This document shows, in pieces, positions 19,424 through 37,494 of a stretch of 64,000 bases of DNA (the first letter of the stretch is position 1; each line of letters opens with the position of its first letter). A program made the position numbers and the translations under genes. Source of the stretch: Chondrosia reniformis (taxonomy: Eukaryota; Porifera; Demospongiae; Chondrillida; Chondrillidae); assembly GCA_947172415.1 (NCBI GenBank), contig OX359194.1, positions 1,860,001-1,924,000 of the forward strand, given 5' to 3'. The notes beneath the pieces are model-generated. The model did no database searches and was not told the DNA's origin. It worked only from the letters and a program-made list of their open reading frames with translations.

Positions 19424-22400
19424 ATGGCTAAAGTTACTTCCTTTCAAAATGCAGATCTTGAAGATCTGGGTCCGGGAAAATATTTCAAAGCATCCAAAGA
19501 CGAATTAGCCTACAGTGACTTTTTCTGGGACAGAGGAGTCGTTATATCTGCAACTGTGATTATTGCCCTGAGCATTTTAGATTTCTCTTCTGCTATAACT
19601 AGAGAATCCGTAAATTGTCTGACACCGAACAACTTTACTCGTGATCAAGCAGCTTTCGTTAATAGTTTCTGTAGTGAGTATACACCATCAACTGACTACT
19701 TCCCTATCTTTCTTGCTGGAGAGGGGTTGGTTTTAGGAGGACTACATTTCTTGTGGTTGATTTTGATGTTTGGAAGAATTCAATCGTTTGCCTCCGTCAT
19801 TGATACTCTTGATAGGCATAAGGATAGAGAAGTAGGAGATTATGCGGATAGAAACTATATTAAAATGACCCAACTAAAGAATTCTTTCAAAAGCCGATAC
19901 GTCTACATATGTTATCTCATCAAACTTCTAGGTCAAATTTTTTTGACCTATTTCAGCATGGTAATATGTGCAGCAGAATTTAACGATTTTAAACCCGTAT
20001 TTGATTGTCCACGAAACCTGCCAGATCCAGATATCGACCCGGATCTGTGGCTTTTAAATGCTACGGTGCCTTGTGTATTGGAAGTGTTAAGATCCCATTT
20101 TGTAGCTTGGAGCGTTAACTATGTGCTGGTTAAAACTATTTTTGCACTTTCTTGCTTTGGGTTAGTTAAATGTCTTTGGACGCATTCTAGAGAGTTAAGC
20201 TATGAAGAGTCGGGAGAATTTTGTTTCAAGTACGGCTTGCCACAGGAGCACAGCTATTTTCCTAAAATGATTCCTTTTCGATGGTTTTCACTGAATTATC
20301 GCATCACCAATGACTTTGATTTTCTCCTAGTAAGATTATACAAACGAGACATTGGTCAAGGCGGAGTTCTTAGAGAATTACTTGTTTCGCAGTATGTAAA
20401 AGATAAAATTAATGAAGTTCAAGAAGCTTTAACACTGCTGGAGGCTACAGGTGACTACATGACCAATTAACTTATCTTCTAGGTCAATATACATGGGTTT
20501 ATGTGTCTGTTTAAAAACGGTGGTTATTTTTTCAAGCTAAGGAAAAATAGATTTAACACAATTTTCTTGAACTTAGTCTAATGATTTAGGTCAAACCTAT
20601 AGAGCTTTGAATGAGCATACAGTTAGGCTTCTTTTCTTCCTTTCTCCTTTGGGCCAGACAACTGTTTCTGGGAAAGCCATGCACCCTTCATCAGTGAGCC
20701 TTGGTCTTTTGTGACTCTCCAGATATATAATGCATGCTTTAGAAGCCTCGTTATAGATATATCACAAAATTGTATTTAACAATTTCTCTATCCTTACATG
20801 TGTAGATGCTGTAGATAAAAATTTGATCAAAAAATTAAAACTACCAAAAGGTAAGGAGTCAGATGATAATGATCCAGAAATCTTTTCTCACTTCTTGACA
20901 AATTTGATGTTTTGCAATGAACAACGTGCACCTGAAGACTCTCCTCAAAACGATAACATCATGAAAAGTATGGCCGCCTTTGAAGCATGTTTTGGATCAC
21001 AAGGGTTTGCATATAAATTGGCATTAGCTACTAATCGGGTAAGTTCGAATTTACAAGACAAGTGGATACATTACTTGTGGTCTATTATCACTTTGATTAT
21101 TATATTAGACATAATAGTATATTCATAAGGCCACACCAAGTAAATTTCCTGTTTCTCATCATCCGCCCTCATGCACTTCCTGGCAATGGAGCTATCAAAA
21201 ACACAATGTATTAATATATGTTACGTACTTCCGCATTGAATATTGTACATTGAAGTTTTAGAAAACGCAGACATAACATTATATGGTGATGGTCATTGTC
21301 CCTAGGTCGAATATTTTATCTGCTGCGATTGATTGCACAACAGCTGTTAACAAGGGGGGCGAGTGCAATCGATTTATAACGCTGTGTAATTGTTTTCTGT
21401 GTTATTTGCCCTCCCGCCTGCGTGGCTTTGAAGCCACTTCTTTGGATGAGAAACAGAAAATTATCTTGCTGTGGCCTAATAATCAATACACCGTTTTTAT
21501 TACACGCTACATCTACTTTAGAGTAAAGGCCTATAGAGTGAGAGATTAGGGATGAGGATACATATATGAGGTTTATTTTTTCTTTGTTTTCTATGGGGCC
21601 AGACAGCTGTTTCTGGGAATTCCACCATTCATTGGTGACCCTAGCTGGCCTGGGAATCTTTGTCTTCTTCTTGATCTTTTGTGAGTCATTTACATTAATA
21701 TTTTTATACATTATTGGGGCCTTCTCTTACTTTTATATATACCTATGTATTGTAGATAATATCATTGCGATTTGATCCATTTTACAAGAATGAGAAGGTT
21801 CCAGTTAAATACAGCACATTCACATCTGGGATTTGTGTTATCAGAACATACACGAATATATACTCCCAGCCAACGTGTGTAAGAAGCAAGGTTGGTATTT
21901 TTCCATGTATATTATGTACTTTTACCGATTGCCATCGCAATGGGCTAACAATTGAAGGAGGGGCATTATCTATTGTAAACATAGTGAATTGTTGAATAAG
22001 ATTTTCATACAAGCAAATCTCATGCATTTCTACTCTTATGCCATATTGATCCTAGTTATCTTGGTAATAGAGTATAAAATGGTCATAATAGTCCACTGAC
22101 TTTGAATTCCACTGAAATATAGTTATTCAGTTATAGTGCTTACCTCTGGACCACCACTATTACCTATGTATATTTATACAACAACTAATGTTTCTTAACA
22201 TTTGCTACATAGATTTATAATAGATATTCCCTTCTTTTTCAGGTTGATGAAATGTATACTCAATACGTTAAACATGGACCTAACAAGCCTCCAGCAAGGG
22301 AGCGAGAAGAAATTACTAGCACTAATCAAAATCGTATTAAATTTATAATGATAGGTCCTTTTGTTAATAAAGATCGAGTCATGACACTGCATATGCTACT

Positions 22401-23347
22401 ATATACAATTGAAAGCAGCCAGCTTCTTGATCAAAAGGCCCGTCTGATAATAGTCAGACCAGTAAAAATTAACGGAAATGATGTATCGAAACTATTTTAC
22501 AGGTTTAATCCCAATCTAACAAGGTGAGTCTTATGTATTGCTGGTAATCTATATATATGTCTCATTATCTATAGTTAGTCGTAGTACAGTATAGCCATGG
22601 CCAGAAATTTTGGCAGTAAGAATATATTTGGTAGATTGCTCAAAGTATGGCATTTAGTGGATTTTACTTTAAAGATTTTACTGACAAGACAGCTGTTCAC
22701 CTACGTATGCTTGGTGTAGTTTGGCAGTTGAAATACCGGCAGATTGCTCTCAAAGCTGCCAATCTGCCAAAATAATATATTTGCCGCCAAACTTTCCGGC
22801 TATACATATATATTACAATGAAAGAGTAGATGGGTTGCATGTAGAGAATTGGAATCTAATATTGACATTAAATTAATTAAGCTTTGTTTTACTCCTTAAT
22901 ACTTAGCAATGTATATGCATATGTATGTATCTTAGATTTTTCATGTATTAGACACTAATACATGGATGTAGTATAGACATTTACTGAAGAGAGTAAAATA
23001 ATAAAAAGACAATCAAAAAGTTTTTTCTGATTTGGAATGATGTGTTGACATACAATGTGATGCCATAAAATAATTACTTTATTAGATTTACAGTACGTAG
23101 ATTGTATGTAGTACATTCATCTATATAACACTAATATTTGAATTTTCCTTTTACTCTTAGAAAAACTGACAAAAATGATAGAGACACTGCTAGAAATACT
23201 GCATCTGAAGTAACCAGAAACCTTACAACATTACAGAACCACTTTCGAATCAATGAATTTGGTAGCAGGTTTCATAAAACCCACCTGTTTTGTTCTGTCT
23301 ATCGATATGAACCTGGATTAACACTTAAATGGGTAGCCCTGCAGTAA
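19424..23347 (+). CDS. Innexin/pannexin/LRRC8-superfamily channel-like protein
   Basis: Exons 19424-20450, 20806-21038, 21756-21890, 22243-22523 and 23161-23347 join in frame to 620 aa. The alternative donor at 21879 (GTAAGA) is also in phase and would remove four residues. The first exon has four hydrophobic segments at about residues 38-58, 96-117, 160-183 and 226-252. The first outer loop has C65 and C83 around a FTRDQAAFVNSFC stretch, close to the pannexin loop-1 pattern. The second outer loop has C195, C217 and an NAT sequon. After the fourth segment, ITNDFDFLLVRLYKRD resembles the LRRC8/pannexin post-TM4 motif. This layout fits a large-pore channel subunit at the plasma membrane. The C-terminal 275 residues are not recognised and show no leucine-rich repeats. 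Family placement is by eye; CALHM-like four-pass proteins are the main alternative. Confidence 0.68.
20630..20722 (-). repeat. R1 fragment
   Basis: Minus-strand partial R1 ('cttcttttcttcctttctcc', 'gggccagacaactgtttctg', 'cttcatcagtgagcc') in intron 1 of the channel-like gene. Confidence 0.65.
21560..21695 (-). repeat. R1 fragment
   Basis: Minus-strand R1 ('ccagacagctgtttctggga', 'ttccaccattcattggtgac', 'tcttgatcttttgtgagtc') in intron 2 of the channel-like gene. Confidence 0.7.
22590..22804. mobile_element. MITE-like element with ~55 bp inverted ends
   Basis: The left end ('tatagccatggcca' through 'ttttggcag' and 'atatttggtagattg') is the imperfect reverse complement of the right end ('caatctgccaaaat', 'atatttgccgccaaa', 'ccggctata'). 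It is about 215 bp, has no ORF and carries TA at both edges. It lies in the fourth intron of the channel-like gene. Confidence 0.6.
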
Positions 23348-25093: not shown

Positions 25094-27397
25094 TTATTTC
25101 TTCTTTAGCTCTACATCTCCACCTTCAGATGCAGGCTTTGAATTTGAACTTTTGCAGCATTTGCCTTGCTTGCTATTACAGATTAGCAGTACAGCAAAGA
25201 TCACAAGAGCCAGCAACAAAATACCACATATTGCACCAAGAACTATTGTGGTAATCCTGAACGATTTTACTTCTCCTTCAAGCTGTGATATCTTCTGGTC
25301 TTGGGTATCATCCATATCGCTTGGACTACTTGAATCAGCTTCATAGGCCCCACATTGGGGAAACCCCTGTGGAATGGGTTGTTCATTAGGAGCAGATGTC
25401 GCATTGACAAGCATGGCCATTCCTCCTAAATGATGTGGTTCGTTGTGACAGTGTATCAACCACCAACCCCAATTGTTGGACTGAAAGCGAATAATGACAT
25501 AACCTCCATAAGGGACGATGATTGTGTCCTTTAGAGGAAGGGTGTCAACTAAAGGAGTTTCAGGTCGTGTACCATTGGTCCAAGAAACATTAGCATGGCA
25601 TCGATAAGATATTTTACTGCCGCATGTTATATCTTTGGTGGATTCACCAGCCTTTCCATCAGATGAATAAGAAGGCCATCCAATTTTTAATACCCGAAAA
25701 TGGTGACCATGAAGATGAATGGGATGGGATTCTCTTATGTCAGGATTAATGAAAACTATTTCAACGGTGTCAGTAGTAATTGTGTAGGTATAAATGCATG
25801 TTTCCCCATATCCAAATTCATTAGGATCTTGTGAGTACTGACAGAATGGTTGACTTGCTGGTATGGTGTCTTCTTGTGACAAAGGTGGGCTTCCTGGAAG
25901 TAGAAACCCTCGATTATTTATACTAGCCCCTATTCTAGTGAATTGAAAGTTTAGAAACACATCTTCATTCAGAGGTCTGTCATTGGGTACACGTTCAGGG
26001 ACTCTCAGCAGCAGTTTATCAACATTAATACAACTAATGTTGTATGAACTTGGATAGTCCTCAAAGAGACAATTCACCGCATAACAAGTGCTCTCCATGC
26101 ATCGAGTGATGGGATCATACGTATCATCAAAATCAGCAGGAAGTTGTTCAATTGCTCCACTGTAATGTAGTACAGCATACCCTCGATGAGCTTTGATGCA
26201 GTAACCTCTTTCTTCCAATATAACTGGATCTTCAAGTGTTTCTATGACAATTAGGTAGTTGCCATCTGTTTGATTTGCATCCAAAATGAAATCATAGCGT
26301 TCACCGGCAGTTACAATAATGTAATCTACAAGGATATCATTTGGTGTTCTGACATCTATTCCATCAGTTGCAGCTAATTGAAATTTGTGATTGTGAATTG
26401 AGAACCTGTAAGCATAATTCACTTGTGCCCCAACCAGTCTAAAGCGATATTTCTTTCCCGATTCAATGCTAAAGAAAGGAAGTGCTACATTAGCTCTTCT
26501 TTGACATGTGGTGCTATCCGGAGTGTATTGCCAACCTGCACTGTTGATTAAGCCAATAGGGAAAGGCACAAATGCAGCAGATACTCCATCAATCATTGGA
26601 ACACTTTTATAAGAAATTGAATTGTTTACTGGATCAGAAAAACCCACTCCATTTAAGTCTTTTTCAAATATCCAAATATCCGAGTTTACAGGGAACAATT
26701 CAAAGAAAACTAAAGTATGGAGACTTGGCATGTCTTCATATGTTGGATTTGGAGTAGTTTTAGGCCAATCCAGTACAACAAAGCCACCATACATTCCGTT
26801 ACTCCTCTGACCTGCAACATGGGAATGATACCAATATGTTCCAGCAGGAAAGAAGTGGAAATCATACACAAACTCATTGCCTGGCAGAATGGGACACTGT
26901 GTGACATACGCAGTACCATCTGAGTAAGGACTCCCTCTGACATGTTGACCATGCCAGTGAATAGTGATGGCCTCTGTATGCAGGTTATTGATAACCCTAA
27001 TTCTCACTCTCTGGTTTTTATATCCGATGATTGTAGGTCCTGGAAGCTGGTGATTGAATACAACCAGATTTCTTTGAGTAACTCCATCCACAACTATTGG
27101 TGGAAGCACAGTAGCATCATCAGCTGGTCTCTTATCGACAAAGTCAAGGCCTCCGGTGTCATTGACAAACATTGGGTAACCTTTGACCAGAAGTCCTGTA
27201 TTACTATCAAAGGTATAGGCTGTGAGAGTATGCATGGAAGAGACAGTCAAATTCAGCTGGCAAACAGTATCAATGTCTGGACTTTGACAGGTTAAACTTC
27301 GTTGCAGCTCCATAAAACTGAATCCTTCAGAATAATGAATGCTCAATAGTAAAACAGCCAGAAGACTACAGAATAATTCAGAACTACTCATTGCCAT
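25094..27397 (-). CDS. Membrane-anchored laccase-like multicopper oxidase, intronless
   Basis: 767 aa from the ATG at 27397. The in-frame ATG 78 bp upstream would bury the signal peptide, so the internal start is preferred. A signal peptide (about 1-24, SLLAVLLLSI core) is followed by three cupredoxin domains. Copper motifs are HWHGQH (147-152), WYHSH (189-193), HPIHLHGHH (about 558-566) and HCHNEPHHLGGM (about 649-660). These supply the trinuclear cluster and the type 1 site with Met in the axial position. A C-terminal helix (about 715-739) and a basic KKK-ending tail make it type I, so the enzyme would face outside. Such enzymes oxidise phenols, amines or metals with reduction of O2 to water; the substrate here is unknown. 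It has no introns, unlike most neighbours, which may reflect an intronless ancestor or retroposition. Confidence 0.9.
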   Translation of the reverse strand: MAMSSSELFCSLLAVLLLSIHYSEGFSFMELQRSLTCQSPDIDTVCQLNLTVSSMHTLTAYTFDSNTGLLVKGYPMFVNDTGGLDFVDKRPADDATVLPPIVVDGVTQRNLVVFNHQLPGPTIIGYKNQRVRIRVINNLHTEAITIHWHGQHVRGSPYSDGTAYVTQCPILPGNEFVYDFHFFPAGTYWYHSHVAGQRSNGMYGGFVVLDWPKTTPNPTYEDMPSLHTLVFFELFPVNSDIWIFEKDLNGVGFSDPVNNSISYKSVPMIDGVSAAFVPFPIGLINSAGWQYTPDSTTCQRRANVALPFFSIESGKKYRFRLVGAQVNYAYRFSIHNHKFQLAATDGIDVRTPNDILVDYIIVTAGERYDFILDANQTDGNYLIVIETLEDPVILEERGYCIKAHRGYAVLHYSGAIEQLPADFDDTYDPITRCMESTCYAVNCLFEDYPSSYNISCINVDKLLLRVPERVPNDRPLNEDVFLNFQFTRIGASINNRGFLLPGSPPLSQEDTIPASQPFCQYSQDPNEFGYGETCIYTYTITTDTVEIVFINPDIRESHPIHLHGHHFRVLKIGWPSYSSDGKAGESTKDITCGSKISYRCHANVSWTNGTRPETPLVDTLPLKDTIIVPYGGYVIIRFQSNNWGWWLIHCHNEPHHLGGMAMLVNATSAPNEQPIPQGFPQCGAYEADSSSPSDMDDTQDQKISQLEGEVKSFRITTIVLGAICGILLLALVIFAVLLICNSKQGKCCKSSNSKPASEGGDVELKKK

Positions 27398-27810
27398 AAT
27401 AAAGAACTTTGCTTTAAATAGCTTGTACACAAATATATTATTTTGTAACTTGCAGTCTATATATATGTGTAACATTATACTTGTAATCTATAAATAGAAG
27501 GCACCAATATAGAACTTTTTGAAATGTTAAGTGTTGAAATTTGCAGCTTTTACATAAAATAGTGCTGCTTACTGATTGATTAAATAGGTGTACTTGTTTA
27601 GTTGCCTCTAAGTTCATTTGGATATAACTTGTGGGTTAGCGCTGTCACCCCTAGCTTGAACGCTTTGTTGGGCTTATATATATTCATAATCCTAACGATT
27701 CTTTCTGCTTACTAGCAAGTAGATATCTTAGTTGGCGCCATTTGTGTATTTACTTCATGAATATCATTAATTTATGATGCAATAGGCTGAAAGTAATGTG
27801 GAACCAGATC

Positions 27811-28750: not shown

Positions 28751-29758
28751 TTATGACTTTGAACTGCTTTCACTGCTCTCCATTAATTCAACTTCTATTG
28801 CAATCACCCGATTCTTCTTCAGATGGTAGCAGGTTAACCATTTAAAGTACCTTTCATACACCTTTTTTCTGATTGGCTTGAAATAGAGGATTATAAGAAT
28901 AGGTGTAGGATAGAGGGAAATAAAAATGACATATGCCTCAATTATGCCAGCAACAACTTCAATAACATTCATCTCCTTGGTTTCTGGTATAGCAGTAGCA
29001 ATTGTTGGGGCAAAATGACCAATGGAGTTTATAGAGTTTCCAATTAACAAAAACAGACCAAATTTTATCAAAGCTTTAAGTGCTGATGTATCTCCGGTAA
29101 TGCTATTCTTTTTAATACTGTAAAGTGCAATAGCCGGGGCTCCAATGGTTATAATGTAGACCAGAATTCCAAACACAACAATGTAAACGACAACTAATAA
29201 ATACGCTATTGCTGTATCAGGGACATGTGGAGAACACTTTACATTACCTACTGAATTTATCTCCAATGCTGCTTGAAACAAAAGGCCAATATTTTCAATT
29301 ATAACCAAAATCCATACTAAAAATGAGCCCAGAATGAGATACTTCCATCTGACAGCTCTTTCTCCCCTTCTTACCATGATGTACACAACTACAGCAAATT
29401 CAGCCATAAAACTCAAGCGACAGGCACCACCAGCAACAGTTAACCACACCGTTATACGACAAATAGTATCAACCGGTTGGAGGGATGGAAGAACTGCTAG
29501 TAGGAATATATATAAGTGAAATGCGATTATGGCAACAGCTACAAACACAGAAGCAGCCAACAGGTTCACCAGTACAATCCTTATAACCTTTGCCATGCTC
29601 TTCTCCATTGCTACTAAAAAGATAACAAATAGGTTCAGCAGTAATGCCAGGGTGGGCATTAATGGGAAATATACTGCAGGATGGATATATGGTGCTTCTG
29701 AAATTTCCTCCTGGCCTGAAAAATTACTCCAGTTCAAGTTCATTGCTAAGAACCTCAA
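28751..29758 (-). CDS. Orphan seven-transmembrane receptor, paralogue A
   Basis: Single-exon ORF of 335 aa; M6 (29743) is an equally good start. The short outer N-terminus has NWS and NFS sequons. Seven hydrophobic segments follow. A Cys before TM3 (TICRITVWL) and one in the second outer loop (VKCSPHV) can form the class A disulphide. TM3 carries GGACRLSFMAEF and ends VVYIMVRRGE instead of DRY. The third inner loop has IKKNSITGDT, and TM7 ends YPTPILIILYF in place of NPxxY. These features suggest a divergent rhodopsin-like receptor of a lineage-specific family; the ligand is unknown. It is first in a tandem trio on one strand with 31886-32893 and 36352-37362. Confidence 0.82.
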   Translation of the reverse strand: MRFLAMNLNWSNFSGQEEISEAPYIHPAVYFPLMPTLALLLNLFVIFLVAMEKSMAKVIRIVLVNLLAASVFVAVAIIAFHLYIFLLAVLPSLQPVDTICRITVWLTVAGGACRLSFMAEFAVVVYIMVRRGERAVRWKYLILGSFLVWILVIIENIGLLFQAALEINSVGNVKCSPHVPDTAIAYLLVVVYIVVFGILVYIITIGAPAIALYSIKKNSITGDTSALKALIKFGLFLLIGNSINSIGHFAPTIATAIPETKEMNVIEVVAGIIEAYVIFISLYPTPILIILYFKPIRKKVYERYFKWLTCYHLKKNRVIAIEVELMESSESSSKS

Positions 29759-30164
29759 ATAAATGATTTTGATATTCTTTAAAGTTGTTGAGTTATTGGC
29801 AAATGAGACTGGATATTAATATAGTAATATTCTTCTATATACGTATATAACTAGTAACTTGCAAAACTGCTGCTCCTACTAATCATTGTAAATATATAGT
29901 ACATATGTCAAATTACTGCAATTGATACAATAATTGTGTTGATTCATGATCAAACATATTAATCACCTCTCAATTTCCCCCTTAAATAAAAAGTGACATT
30001 ATCACCTAGAATACAAGTAAACTATATATTGAGATTCTCTAAAGTTTAGCGTAAATGAAATAATAACTTAACAATTCCAATCAAATCTACCAAATTAGTA
30101 ACATGCTGTCATGGCAACAGAGTATGGTATTTTTATACAAAGTAGACTTATACAAAGGTCAAAA

Positions 30165-31885: not shown

Positions 31886-32893
31886 TCAAGAACTGTCTAC
31901 AGTCATCCCACTAGCTGTAGTCTTAGCTCCACTATTCCTTTCAGCTTCTACACGCTGACATTCTCTGCAGCATCTTGTTGCAATACTAAATACCTTGCTT
32001 CTGATTTTGCGAAAGTATAGCACAATTAGTACGGGAGTTATAAGGAGAGATACATAAACAAAATATCCTTCAACTATTCCAAAGATGATTTCAGATTTCT
32101 GCATATTTTTGCTCTTGGGTGCCGCAGATGCTATTATGGGAACAACATGTCCAATGAAACTTATAGTATTGCCAATCAAGAGGAAAAGGGAGAATCGGAC
32201 TAAAGCTTTCTGTGACCCTTTATCCCCTGTTATATTGTTCTTCTTAATGTAAAACAATGCTCTAATTGGAAATCCAATAGTTATTGCATATACTACTACA
32301 CCAAATACTAGAATGTATATGGAAGTAAAAAGATATCCTCCGACTGAATCTTGAACATGAACAGAGCATTTAAATCCGACAAGTGAGTTTACTAACACAA
32401 CTTGCGGTGAGAAGAGTACACTGCTATAGGCTGCTACAGTAATCCAGATGACTGCTATGGATAACACAAGGAATGGCATTCTGAGCTTGGTATCACCATA
32501 CCACACAAGAATAAAGACTACTGTAGAGAACAATGCCATAAAACCAAGACGACAAGCTCCTCCTCCAAGTACTAGCCAAACAGCAAAGTGGCAAATCCCA
32601 GGGTCTGGATCTCTTAGAGGATCAAATGTGAAGACTGCATCCACTACGTCAAACACTATACCACCAGCCGCAATCACAATACAAGAAAGAAGAACACTAA
32701 TGAGCACTAGACGTATAGTCTTGTGTAAGCTCTTCTCTCGTATCACCAAAAATATGACTAGGCCATTCAGTACTAATGACAAAGTTATTATGCATAGTCT
32801 TACAATGGCATTGCCAAATACTGCATAATTCTTCGTCCCTTGTCCTTCTAGCACTGAAAGATCAGGTACTGTACTATTAGTAGAGTTACTCAT
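31886..32893 (-). CDS. Orphan seven-transmembrane receptor, paralogue B
   Basis: Taken from the ATG at 32893 (335 aa, starting MSNSTNST with clustered sequons). The open frame continues upstream to 33013, but that part is not receptor-like and a splice acceptor-like CTAG precedes the ATG. Seven hydrophobic segments are present, with GGACRLGFMALF in TM3, Cys in GICHFAVWL and FKCSVHV, IKKNNITGDK in inner loop 3 and ITPVLIVLYF at TM7. It is clearly a paralogue of the receptors at 28751 and 36352. The C-terminal tail is Arg/Glu-rich with CC near RCCRECQR, a possible palmitoylation site. Confidence 0.82.
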   Translation of the reverse strand: MSNSTNSTVPDLSVLEGQGTKNYAVFGNAIVRLCIITLSLVLNGLVIFLVIREKSLHKTIRLVLISVLLSCIVIAAGGIVFDVVDAVFTFDPLRDPDPGICHFAVWLVLGGGACRLGFMALFSTVVFILVWYGDTKLRMPFLVLSIAVIWITVAAYSSVLFSPQVVLVNSLVGFKCSVHVQDSVGGYLFTSIYILVFGVVVYAITIGFPIRALFYIKKNNITGDKGSQKALVRFSLFLLIGNTISFIGHVVPIIASAAPKSKNMQKSEIIFGIVEGYFVYVSLLITPVLIVLYFRKIRSKVFSIATRCCRECQRVEAERNSGAKTTASGMTVDSS

Positions 32894-34639
32894 TTCAGCT
32901 AGCAACTGAAAATAGTTTAAATTAGTCTGAACCTGAAGTTTAATATAGTTTATGTTACTATAAAAGGTAATGCTCCCAGAAACCACTAAAATTGATTGGC
33001 AATATTTGAACAAGTGGTATTCCTGAATACATACAAAATGCTTATTGGAAGGGTTTCAGATTATATCAGAGGAAATGGTAGGTGAAATAAGAGTTAATTT
33101 GTAGGTATTAACAGTTTCCTATTGACTTCATTTCAATTATTAAACTGTAAAAATTTTACATTTAGCTTTGCCTTCGAAGGATGTAGATAACCTGATACTT
33201 CCCTTGAACCTCTTATCCCCTCAATGGGATTACCATATTTGTATCTCTACCAGCCCCTAGTAACTCCTAGCTACACTCAATTGGGAGAGGCATAGTGTAG
33301 ACTTTGAACAAACATGTAAGTCTTAGAATTCATTTGTTTGTTATACATCAATACTAGCAGCAGTAGTAATTAGTCTAGCTGGTTACTTAATTGGTCCTCA
33401 TATGCTTAGAAACTTTGTGGAAAATTCAAGAAAAGTACAATTCAATTAGCCCCCCCATACACAAAATAATTGTCAATAACATGTTATTCTATCAACTGCT
33501 GTCAGGAGCTGTTGCAACTGAACAGTCAAATCAGACAATCAGATTAAGTCTTCTTTATCATGTACCTTTACACTCCTCCCTGACTAGTAGTAACAGTCTC
33601 CTGAAAATGAAGATACAAGTACATAAACACTAGACATGAATGTTATAAGGTACATTGCATGGACATCCACATATGTAGGACACTTGTCTATTGCAAATTT
33701 GGACAACTGACCTCACAAAAACAGGATGCATTCTCTACTCATACTAGAACACTACCCATTTAGGAAGATTACCTCTCTGTGGTTCAATTGCTTTCAAAGG
33801 ACATAAATTTCATTCAACTAAAATATTTCAATTGAAAGACACATGTTACATTCATTTAAAAACAGTTGTATTACAAAGTATGCCTAATAAGAAATAGTCT
33901 GGTAAGTATACACACAAATAGCTGACATTGATAAAAGAACAAGATTAATTCAAAAATCAAATTAATACATTTCTCACAAATGGCTAGATGCAAGAGTGAT
34001 AGCAAGATAACTTACCAATGTGACAGCTTAGAACACGTGCAACACCAACTAAAACGTCTTCAAGCCAAATGGAATCGGAGATACATATCTTAAGGACTGC
34101 CATTTTGTGGGAAATTGTGCAATATTAATGAATTTACATGTACCCAGATAGTCATGTCCGAGTCGAGCGGAAGAATCATAGAAATCTAAGATATACGATC
34201 ATATTACTCCCTATATTTATGTTTGATATGAAGTAATAAATTGTAGTTCCTGTAATTAGGAATTCAATAGCCTATACACTATACTACATCCCAAAGAGAT
34301 GGTTGACAAACTAGGAGAAGCTAGTGCACGGATGCAGAATACAATCCAACTACATGTGAAACAGCACGATACTTCCTCTGAACAATGACCGCAGGCTTGC
34401 CACATGTCACGCACATTCTGAACACATTTAAAGTAAAGCTTAATTTGAGGGTTAGTCCAGGAAGCTTGAGGAAAATTGTATACTGTATTGCATGGATTTC
34501 TTTATTGCTATTCATTAAAACAATGATTCACCAAAGGAACCTTTCATCTATAGCTAAAACAATCTTACTTTGAAAAGCCTGTGCGGTGATTAATGTAATA
34601 AAACAATTAGAACTAATAAGTACATGTAGCTGTTAATCA
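32894..34639. other. Intergenic region between paralogue B and a repeat element
   Basis: AT-rich sequence with short chance frames only. I found no repeat of the families seen elsewhere and no exon-like structure. Confidence 0.4.
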
Positions 34640-36351: not shown

Positions 36352-37362
36352 TTATTGTTTGATGTTGCTTGAAGCAGTTGACTCGGTGGATTTCTTCATC
36401 ATTGATTCTCTTGATGTATTTTTCACAATGTAATCTTTTTTCCTTCTGAAGCATTTCAGTATGCGATCTCTGATTACTTTAAAGTACAATAGAATGAGAA
36501 TTGGAGTTGGAATTAGTGAAATCCAAAAAAGGTAGCCCTGAAAGACATAGAGTGTAATCTCTATAGTGTTCTTATCTTTGGATCCTGGAAGGGATGAAGA
36601 AATCAATGGCACAATTTGACCAAGAAAGCCAATAGAGTTTCCAATCAGCAGAAAAAGGGAAAACTTGACTAAAGCTTTCTTGGCTTTAGTGTCTCCTGTA
36701 ATGCTGTGCTTTTTGATGTAGTACATGGTTCTTATTGGAATTCCAACAGTTATTACATACACAAGTATCCCAAATATAAGAACATACACAATTATAAATC
36801 CAATGCCATATCCATTCTCTTGAGAATGTGGAGAACAGTTAATTTCTGGAAGTGAATTTACTAAAAGAACCTGTTCAGAGAACACAGCTCCATTAAAAGA
36901 TATAGCTGCAATCCATATTACTGCAATACATATTGCTAGATAGCCTAATTTGACCTTTGTTTCTCCATATCTAACTAGATAGTAAACAACTACAGCAAAG
37001 GTAGCCATGAAACTCAGCCTGCATGCTCCACCCGTTAGGAGCTGCCAGACAAAGAAGTGGCAAAAGATGGCATCTGGTTTTATCTCAGGTCTCCAACTAA
37101 TTATGAGTGTAAGTGTATCAATCAAAATGCCACTCAGACCCACAACAATACAGGCAGACAAGATGTTGACTAGCACCAGACGAATTGCACGAGGAAGTTT
37201 ATTTTCCGTGACAACTAAGTAAATGGTAACTGAATTAAACAACAGTCCTGGCAGTAATACGATCAATATCTTTACCCAGCTGTCTGTAACAAAGAGAGTC
37301 ATATCTGGTGGCCTGGATCCTGGAACACTGATACTAGTTGCAGTTAGGTTTGTTTCATTCAT
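36352..37362 (-). CDS. Orphan seven-transmembrane receptor, paralogue C
   Basis: Start taken at 37362 (MNETNLTATS, two sequons; 336 aa). The frame is open to 37494, giving a 380-aa alternative whose extra N-terminus is not receptor-like. Conserved family marks are IFCHFFVWQ and INCSPHS cysteines, GGACRLSFMATF, VVYYLVRYGET after TM3, IKKHSITGDT in inner loop 3, KFSLFLLIGNSI in TM6 and PTPILILLYF in TM7. The Ser/Thr-rich C-terminal tail could be phosphorylated. It is the third member of the tandem minus-strand trio and is separated from paralogue B by the E1 element and the purine tract. Confidence 0.82.
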   Translation of the reverse strand: MNETNLTATSISVPGSRPPDMTLFVTDSWVKILIVLLPGLLFNSVTIYLVVTENKLPRAIRLVLVNILSACIVVGLSGILIDTLTLIISWRPEIKPDAIFCHFFVWQLLTGGACRLSFMATFAVVVYYLVRYGETKVKLGYLAICIAVIWIAAISFNGAVFSEQVLLVNSLPEINCSPHSQENGYGIGFIIVYVLIFGILVYVITVGIPIRTMYYIKKHSITGDTKAKKALVKFSLFLLIGNSIGFLGQIVPLISSSLPGSKDKNTIEITLYVFQGYLFWISLIPTPILILLYFKVIRDRILKCFRRKKDYIVKNTSRESMMKKSTESTASSNIKQ

Positions 37363-37494
37363 ATTCACTGAGTATATTGAAAAACTGATTACTGACCAAT
37401 TTAATGACTGATTTACTGTATGTGTGTTTTTACTGTTGTTGCTGGCCTCCCTGAAAAGTAGTCCCCTGGAGTTCCAGACTAATAATTCAATCAA

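What the first reader, a model, noticed from the sequence alone, without database searches (positions are those of the whole stretch)
19424..23347. Pannexin/innexin/LRRC8-like channel in a probable sponge
The first exon has four membrane segments, two Cys in each outer loop, a loop-1 FTRDQAAFVNSFC stretch and a post-TM4 NDFDFLL motif. These match pannexin and LRRC8 proteins. My understanding is that sponges are usually said to lack innexin-family gap-junction genes, so this could be a deep relative. The C-terminal 275 residues have no leucine-rich repeats, unlike LRRC8, and are unrecognised.
Basis: partly seen in the sequence, partly recalled or inferred. Interest (0 to 1): 0.78.

Follow-up and report, generated by a model that had tools for sequence, protein, structure and literature searches.

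The report
Pannexin-like channel family in a sponge
This sponge gene is one of a family of about a dozen that look like relatives of pannexins and innexins, the large-pore channels animal cells use to release signals or link to neighbours, which published surveys say sponges do not have.

Summary
In detail: 19424-23347 (+) fits a five-exon gene for a 620-aa protein with four membrane segments and two Cys in each outer loop. At least 12 further loci carry a related first exon. A profile of the 13 finds almost only pannexins, innexin-6 and LRRC8A in the PDB (41 of 42 distinct sequences at E<=10; best 8e-9, Pannexin-2). All 13 match Pfam Innexin at E<=0.1; 8 of 13 exceed its cut-off, the window gene does not. 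Loop 1 aligns with PANX2, with Arg73 at the selectivity ring (R89). Every copy has a loop-2 sequon, so I favour a non-junctional large-pore channel. Of the ~280-residue C-terminal part, two exons recur in most paralogues and match nothing credible in Pfam or the PDB. Passages in seven papers say sponges lack innexins/pannexins. Structure prediction was uninformative. No tree with other animals, no expression data and no electrophysiology were possible.

The parts
19424..20450 (+). Exon 1: start codon, N-terminal tail, four membrane segments and post-TM4 segment (residues 1-342 plus the first base of codon 343)
   Evidence: matched by 12 other loci of the genome
19541..19597 (+). TM1 (residues 40-58), preceded by invariant W35 D36
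   Evidence: hydropathy
19616..19672 (+). Extracellular loop 1 core C65-C83, with sequon N70-F-T and R73 aligned to PANX2 R89
19706..19762 (+). TM2 (residues 95-113), with invariant W111
19916..19972 (+). TM3 (residues 165-183)
20006..20074 (+). Extracellular loop 2 core C195-C217, with sequon N212-A-T
20123..20179 (+). TM4 (residues 234-252)
20309..20329 (+). Post-TM4 NDFDFLL motif; paralogues show a varied form of it
20806..21038 (+). Exon 2, C-terminal region (cytoplasmic by inference)
   Evidence: counterpart found only in the closest paralogue, L030
21125..21480 (+). Dispersed repeat with 36-nt terminal inverted repeats inside intron 2; not part of the protein
21756..21890 (+). Exon 3, conserved C-terminal block 1
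   Evidence: similar open frame after an AG in 11 of 12 paralogue loci, some weak
22243..22523 (+). Exon 4, conserved C-terminal block 2
   Evidence: similar open frame in 10 of 12 paralogue loci, some weak, plus one orphan fragment
23161..23347 (+). Exon 5 and stop codon; least certain exon
   Evidence: splice sites and frame only; no convincing paralogue match

Best explanation
The gene encodes a subunit of a large-pore plasma-membrane channel of the pannexin/innexin superfamily. Shown by sequence: four hydrophobic segments, two Cys in each outer loop with the pannexin spacing in loop 1, and homology of the family to pannexins. Inferred: several subunits form a ring; loop 1 forms the outer constriction, with Arg73 as a basic ring as in PANX2 and LRRC8A, favouring anions and possibly ATP. 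Inferred: sugars on N70 and N212 keep two channels from docking, so it acts in a single membrane (release to or exchange with the outside), not as a gap junction. Inferred: the C-terminal domain is a cytoplasmic regulatory part, and the paralogues (Arg in 6, Ile or Leu in 7 of 13 at the constriction) give channels of differing selectivity, perhaps in mixed rings. ATP release in sponge contraction is a plausible role, untested.
For: Family profile against PDB: 41 of 42 distinct sequences at E<=10 are pannexin 1/2/3, innexin-6 or LRRC8A (many are versions of the same few proteins); pannexin 6vd7 aligned from TM1 to TM4. Two sub-alignments that share one member and leave out the window gene and L030 also rank pannexins first: 13 of 15 and 31 of 36 hits are pannexins or innexin-6, best E 1.2e-4 and 1.9e-6. 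Innexin Pfam: 13 of 13 at E<=0.1, 8 of 13 above cut-off. Own-genome Innexin search at E<=1: all 14 matches lie in 11 family loci. Loop 1 aligns to PANX2, whose R89 ring is essential for ion selectivity (PMC10043284 passages). Loop-2 sequons in 13 of 13; a within-loop shuffle gives 2.5e-4 for all of seven subfamily representatives. Extracellular glycosylation hinders pannexin docking (PMC8769644 passages). dN well below dS against L030. Gap junctions not identified in sponges (PMC11883242 passage).
Against: The window protein alone is below the Innexin cut-off and its PDB match covers only TM1 and loop 1. Two paralogues searched alone found little in the PDB: L040 Pannexin-2 at E 0.66 next to a polymerase at 0.95, L034 only ribosomal proteins. 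Seven sequon-bearing innexins are reported in functional gap junctions, so sequons do not exclude docking. The sequon test is weak: I set the loop borders and chose the seven representatives. Structure predictions had mean pLDDT 43.6 and 52.2 and prove nothing. No expression, oligomer, localisation or current data. 7 of 13 family members lack Arg at the constriction.
Confidence: 0.75

Rival explanations
1. It forms true intercellular gap junctions in the sponge, as innexins do in other invertebrates.
For: Many paralogues (13 loci), as in gap-junction families; a TM2 motif P[HY][FY]xW in 9 of 13 members, not in the window gene (its likeness to innexin TM2 is recalled). Sequon-bearing innexins can take part in junctions.
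Against: Each of the 13 copies has a loop-2 sequon. No gap junction has been reported in any sponge lineage (PMC10280926 passage).
Confidence: 0.15
2. It is an LRRC8-type volume-regulated channel that lost its leucine-rich repeats.
For: LRRC8A is found by the family profile over TM3-TM4 at E 0.042 to 0.059. The Arg ring is shared with LRRC8A R103. The post-TM4 NDFDFLL resembles LRRC8 (recalled).
Against: Pannexins score far better (8e-9), and the two sub-alignments do not find LRRC8 at all. PF12534: 0 of 13 at E<=0.1, one at 0.18 among five scanned more loosely, nothing in the genome search, which rang in no control either. No leucine-rich repeat hit.
Confidence: 0.07
3. An unrelated four-helix membrane protein that resembles pannexins by convergence.
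For: Single-protein hits are weak; structure not shown.
Against: The profile hits are nearly specific to this superfamily and extend from TM1 to TM4; 8 of 13 members exceed the curated Innexin cut-off.
Confidence: 0.03

Closest known systems
Pannexins (PANX2 best by score)
   Same: Topology; two Cys per outer loop; 17 residues between the loop-1 Cys (11 of 13 members; 18 in L040 and L041); loop-1 NFTRDQ identical to PANX2 with Arg at the selectivity ring; extracellular sequons.
   Different: Low identity outside loop 1; C-terminal exons 3-4 find nothing in the PDB and nothing credible in Pfam; present as a large family in a sponge.
Innexins (Pfam PF00876)
   Same: 8 of 13 family members exceed the Pfam cut-off; innexin-6 found at E 0.0041.
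   Different: The window gene itself is below the cut-off; sequon in loop 2 of each of the 13; gap-junction function unknown.
LRRC8 volume-regulated anion channels
   Same: TM3-TM4 region matches weakly; basic ring at the outer constriction in 6 of 13 members.
   Different: No leucine-rich repeats; PF12534 not matched by the window protein.
CALHM channels
   Same: Four membrane helices, large pore (PMC7108861 passage).
   Different: No profile match in the protein or in the genome search, which rang in no control; TM arrangement differs from pannexins.

Membership tests
Pannexin/innexin superfamily | Significant profile similarity to known members | tested here: met
   Family profile vs PDB E 8e-9; Innexin Pfam above cut-off in 8 of 13 members by hmmscan. 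For the window protein alone: 17.8 bits, 20.2 for exon 1, below 25.
Pannexin/innexin superfamily | Four membrane helices in a compact domain | tested here: met
   Hydropathy only; helices in the low-confidence model not counted.
Pannexin/innexin superfamily | Two conserved Cys in each extracellular loop | tested here: met
   C65, C83, C195, C217 invariant in 13 of 13; some members have extra Cys.
Pannexin/innexin superfamily | Large-pore fold and ring assembly | tested here: inconclusive
   AlphaFold2 on exon 1 without an alignment: mean pLDDT 43.6; no fold search made.
Pannexin/innexin superfamily | Groups with animal pannexins/innexins in a tree | not testable with these tools
   No collection here holds cnidarian, ctenophore or other sponge genomes.
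Innexin gap-junction proteins | Forms intercellular channels | not testable with these tools
   Sequons in loop 2 of 13 of 13 argue against, not decisively.
LRRC8 | Pannexin_like TM region plus C-terminal leucine-rich repeats | tested here: not met
   No PF12534 or LRR hit in the window protein at E<=10.
CALHM | Match to Ca_hom_mod profile | tested here: not met
   No hit in the window protein at E<=10.

The most novel reading that the evidence does not exclude
The pannexin/innexin superfamily predates the split of sponges from other animals. Sponges kept it as a large family of glycosylated, non-junctional release channels with their own C-terminal regulatory domain, and these supply the extracellular ATP that coordinates contraction in animals without nerves.
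Probability: 0.35. Interest if true: 0.88.

Novelty: new variant of a known kind. Interest (0 to 1): 0.76.

Why it matters
Reviews and surveys state that sponges lack innexins or pannexins (PMC9949713, PMC8769644, PMC6391747, PMC9816575, PMC10280926, PMC4406211, PMC4685580; passages seen), and several argue from that absence about gene loss and the origin of electrical signalling. A clear family in one demosponge would overturn the blanket statement and make it testable whether the first animals had these channels. It also offers candidate ATP-release channels for sponge contraction, in which ATP and glutamate act (PMC11883242: start of abstract and passages) although gap junctions are not known.

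Tried and rejected
Pseudogene: rejected for the window gene; L039 is broken off at the end of TM4 by a repeat, and L042 is an orphan exon-4 fragment with a stop. Relatives in viral contigs and in prokaryote genomes: none. Fold comparison: not run, because both models were of low confidence. Identity of the C-terminal part: no PDB hit at E<=10; Pfam gave two single-member hits at E 0.15 and 0.18, taken as chance. Single-paralogue PDB searches were weak or empty of relatives. Stray Pfam hits taken as chance: Hema_stalk in 2 and Nucleoside_tran in 1 of 13 (about E 0.03), and weaker ones. In the local exon search I dropped second, out-of-pattern hits in L034, L038 and L041 (E 0.69-0.92), and an exon-5 hit in L033 (E 0.01 whole, 0.2 best domain) that lies upstream of exon 1. 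A reversed-sequence control was prepared but not run; the near-specific hit list is the only control on composition.

Full report
What is there. The window lies at G000:C6:1860001-1924000 in a genome of 117,379,552 bases in 15 contigs. Contig lengths 9,415,654 (C3), 8,954,400 (C4), 8,459,200 (C7), 7,702,672 (C9) and 7,633,987 (C11), 8,731,016 (C6) and 17,451 (C15) agree with the Chondrosia reniformis table: 9.42, 8.96, 8.46, 7.7, 7.63 and 8.73 Mb and a 17.45-kb mitochondrion (PMC12181767 passages); only 8.954 against 8.96 is off by a rounding step. No marker gene was examined. So this is almost certainly chromosome 6 of the kidney sponge, a demosponge. The gene model has five exons with GT/AG borders and fitting phases and encodes 620 residues.

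A family, not a single gene. The window protein finds related first exons at 12 other loci, 13 in all on six chromosomes. Two further queries, L036 and L040, find the same 13 and no others; the tool scores only its best candidates, so 13 is a lower bound. Identity to the window exon 1 is 76% for L030 and 27-35% for the other eleven. Invariant in 13 of 13 are the four loop Cys, W35, D36, P68, Q75, W111 and others. In seven pairs compared, dN/dS values were 0.138/1.075 (window-L030), 0.179/0.926 (L033-L034), 0.053/0.36 (L040-L041), 0.021/0.096 (L035-L037), 0.043/0.101 (L031-L032), 0.512/2.76 (L035-L036, saturated) and 0.024/0.022 (L038-L039, of which L039 is truncated) (no significance test). 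The family is thus 12 apparently intact first exons plus one truncated.

Homology. The window protein alone reaches Innexin PF00876 at 17.8 bits (E 0.0021; cut-off 25), and in the PDB only Pannexin-2 (E 3e-4) and Pannexin-1 (0.0074), over TM1 and loop 1. As a family the signal is clear. Against Pfam, 13 of 13 exon-1 regions hit Innexin at E<=0.1. Eight of 13 exceed the cut-off: L031 26.9, L033 34.6, L034 30.1, L035 28.6, L037 26.9, L039 34.9, L040 30.0 and L041 35.8 bits. Five do not: window 20.2, L030 12.5, L032 22.6, L036 19.5 and L038 22.2. The genome search, which adds up neighbouring pieces, puts 10 of the 11 loci it finds over the cut-off. Against the PDB, 42 distinct sequences pass E<=10: 41 are pannexins 1-3, innexin-6 or LRRC8A (largely versions of the same few proteins), the other is Lin1840 at E 0.99. 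Two sub-alignments of six and five members, sharing L035 and leaving out the window gene and L030, also rank pannexins first: one search has 13 pannexins among 15 hits (the other two Lin1840), one search has 31 pannexins or innexin-6 among 36 (five others at E 0.13 or worse); neither finds LRRC8. Single paralogues do poorly: L040 reaches Pannexin-2 only at E 0.66, L034 finds none. An Innexin search of the whole genome gives 14 matches at E<=1, all in 11 of the 13 family loci, the window gene and L030 not among them. No other, more standard innexin appeared.

Anatomy and mechanism. C65-C83 encloses 17 residues, as in PANX2 and in pannexin 6vd7, and NFTRDQ is identical to PANX2. From the printed alignment, window R73 corresponds to PANX2 R89 and window N70 to PANX2 N86. 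R89 forms the outer constriction, and R89W makes the channel essentially non-selective; LRRC8A R103 is equivalent and DCPIB blocks both channels; the PANX2 disulphides are C81-C279 and C99-C259 (PMC10043284 passages). By analogy I expect C65-C217 and C83-C195. At the position of R73 the family has Arg in 6 of 13 and Ile or Leu in 7 of 13, so selectivity probably differs between copies. That N86 is the glycosylated residue of PANX2 is recalled; the passage I saw says only that the PANX2 site lies in loop 1. Loop-2 sequons occur in 13 of 13 and loop-1 sequons in 4 of 13, within loop borders that I set. Extracellular glycosylation hinders docking of pannexins, yet seven sequon-bearing innexins have been shown in gap junctions (PMC8769644 passages). 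I therefore favour, without proof, a single-membrane large-pore channel.

The C-terminal part. In a local search of the paralogue loci, exon-3-like frames follow in 11 of 12 loci and exon-4-like frames in 10 of 12, plus one orphan fragment; the weakest accepted hits (E 0.44 and 0.3) rest on position and pattern. In the 12 loci examined, including the window, an AG precedes the exon-3 frame; my donor pattern found no in-phase exon-3 donor in L032, L036 and L040. Ten joined peptides (window and nine loci; L031, L038 and L039 left out) align with invariant P16, G83, P118, G123 and P135 of the first row. No PDB hit at E<=10 and no credible Pfam hit. Exon 2 was matched only in L030, and exon 5 convincingly in none. 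This looks like a family-specific cytoplasmic domain; regulation is a guess.

Structure. AlphaFold2 without an alignment gave mean pLDDT 43.6 for exon 1 and 52.2 for exon 4; neither says anything about the fold.

What is known. Passages in seven papers say that innexins or pannexins have not been found in sponges; one says that the Amphimedon genome and public sponge transcriptomes have no identified pannexins (PMC4685580). The inclusion rules of a 2388-innexin survey (PF00876 assignment or reciprocal hit, four TM segments, not fragmented) would probably admit several members here. Nine library searches on the subject showed no report of a sponge member in the rows listed; five of them listed only part of their hits (20 of 142, 20 of 30, 12 of 13, 15 of 41, 15 of 504). 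Subscription journals, preprints, database annotations and the Ensembl annotation of this assembly were not seen.

Noticed in passing
window 21125-21480: Intron 2 holds a dispersed element with 36-nt terminal inverted repeats (86% complementary). Seven other places match 72-88% over most of the 381-base query, and there are many shorter matches (33 in all, a lower bound): a MITE-like repeat.
   Followed up: partly
window 20642-20679 and 21587-21624: A 38-nt motif (82% identical) is repeated in introns 1 and 2; a similar stretch seems, by eye, to occur in the L036 frame printed.
   Followed up: no
window 28751-29815, 31886-33055, 36352-37494 (-): Three single-frame seven-helix receptor-like genes in a row, by eye related to each other. 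One matches 7tm_1 weakly (21.1 bits, below cut-off), the other two match no Pfam family at E<=0.01: possibly a sponge receptor cluster.
   Followed up: partly
window 25094-27487 (-): Single-frame multicopper oxidase with three Cu-oxidase domains and a hydrophobic C-terminal stretch, next to the channel gene.
   Followed up: partly
L039 (G000:C4:795500-804800): Family member 95% identical to L038 but broken off at the end of TM4 by a run of a five-residue (SNLQL) repeat; dN is about equal to dS over few differences, as in a decaying copy.
   Followed up: partly
L042 (G000:C11:1448500-1455500): Orphan fragment resembling exon 4 of the family with an in-frame stop; the exon-1 searches found no first exon there.
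   Followed up: no
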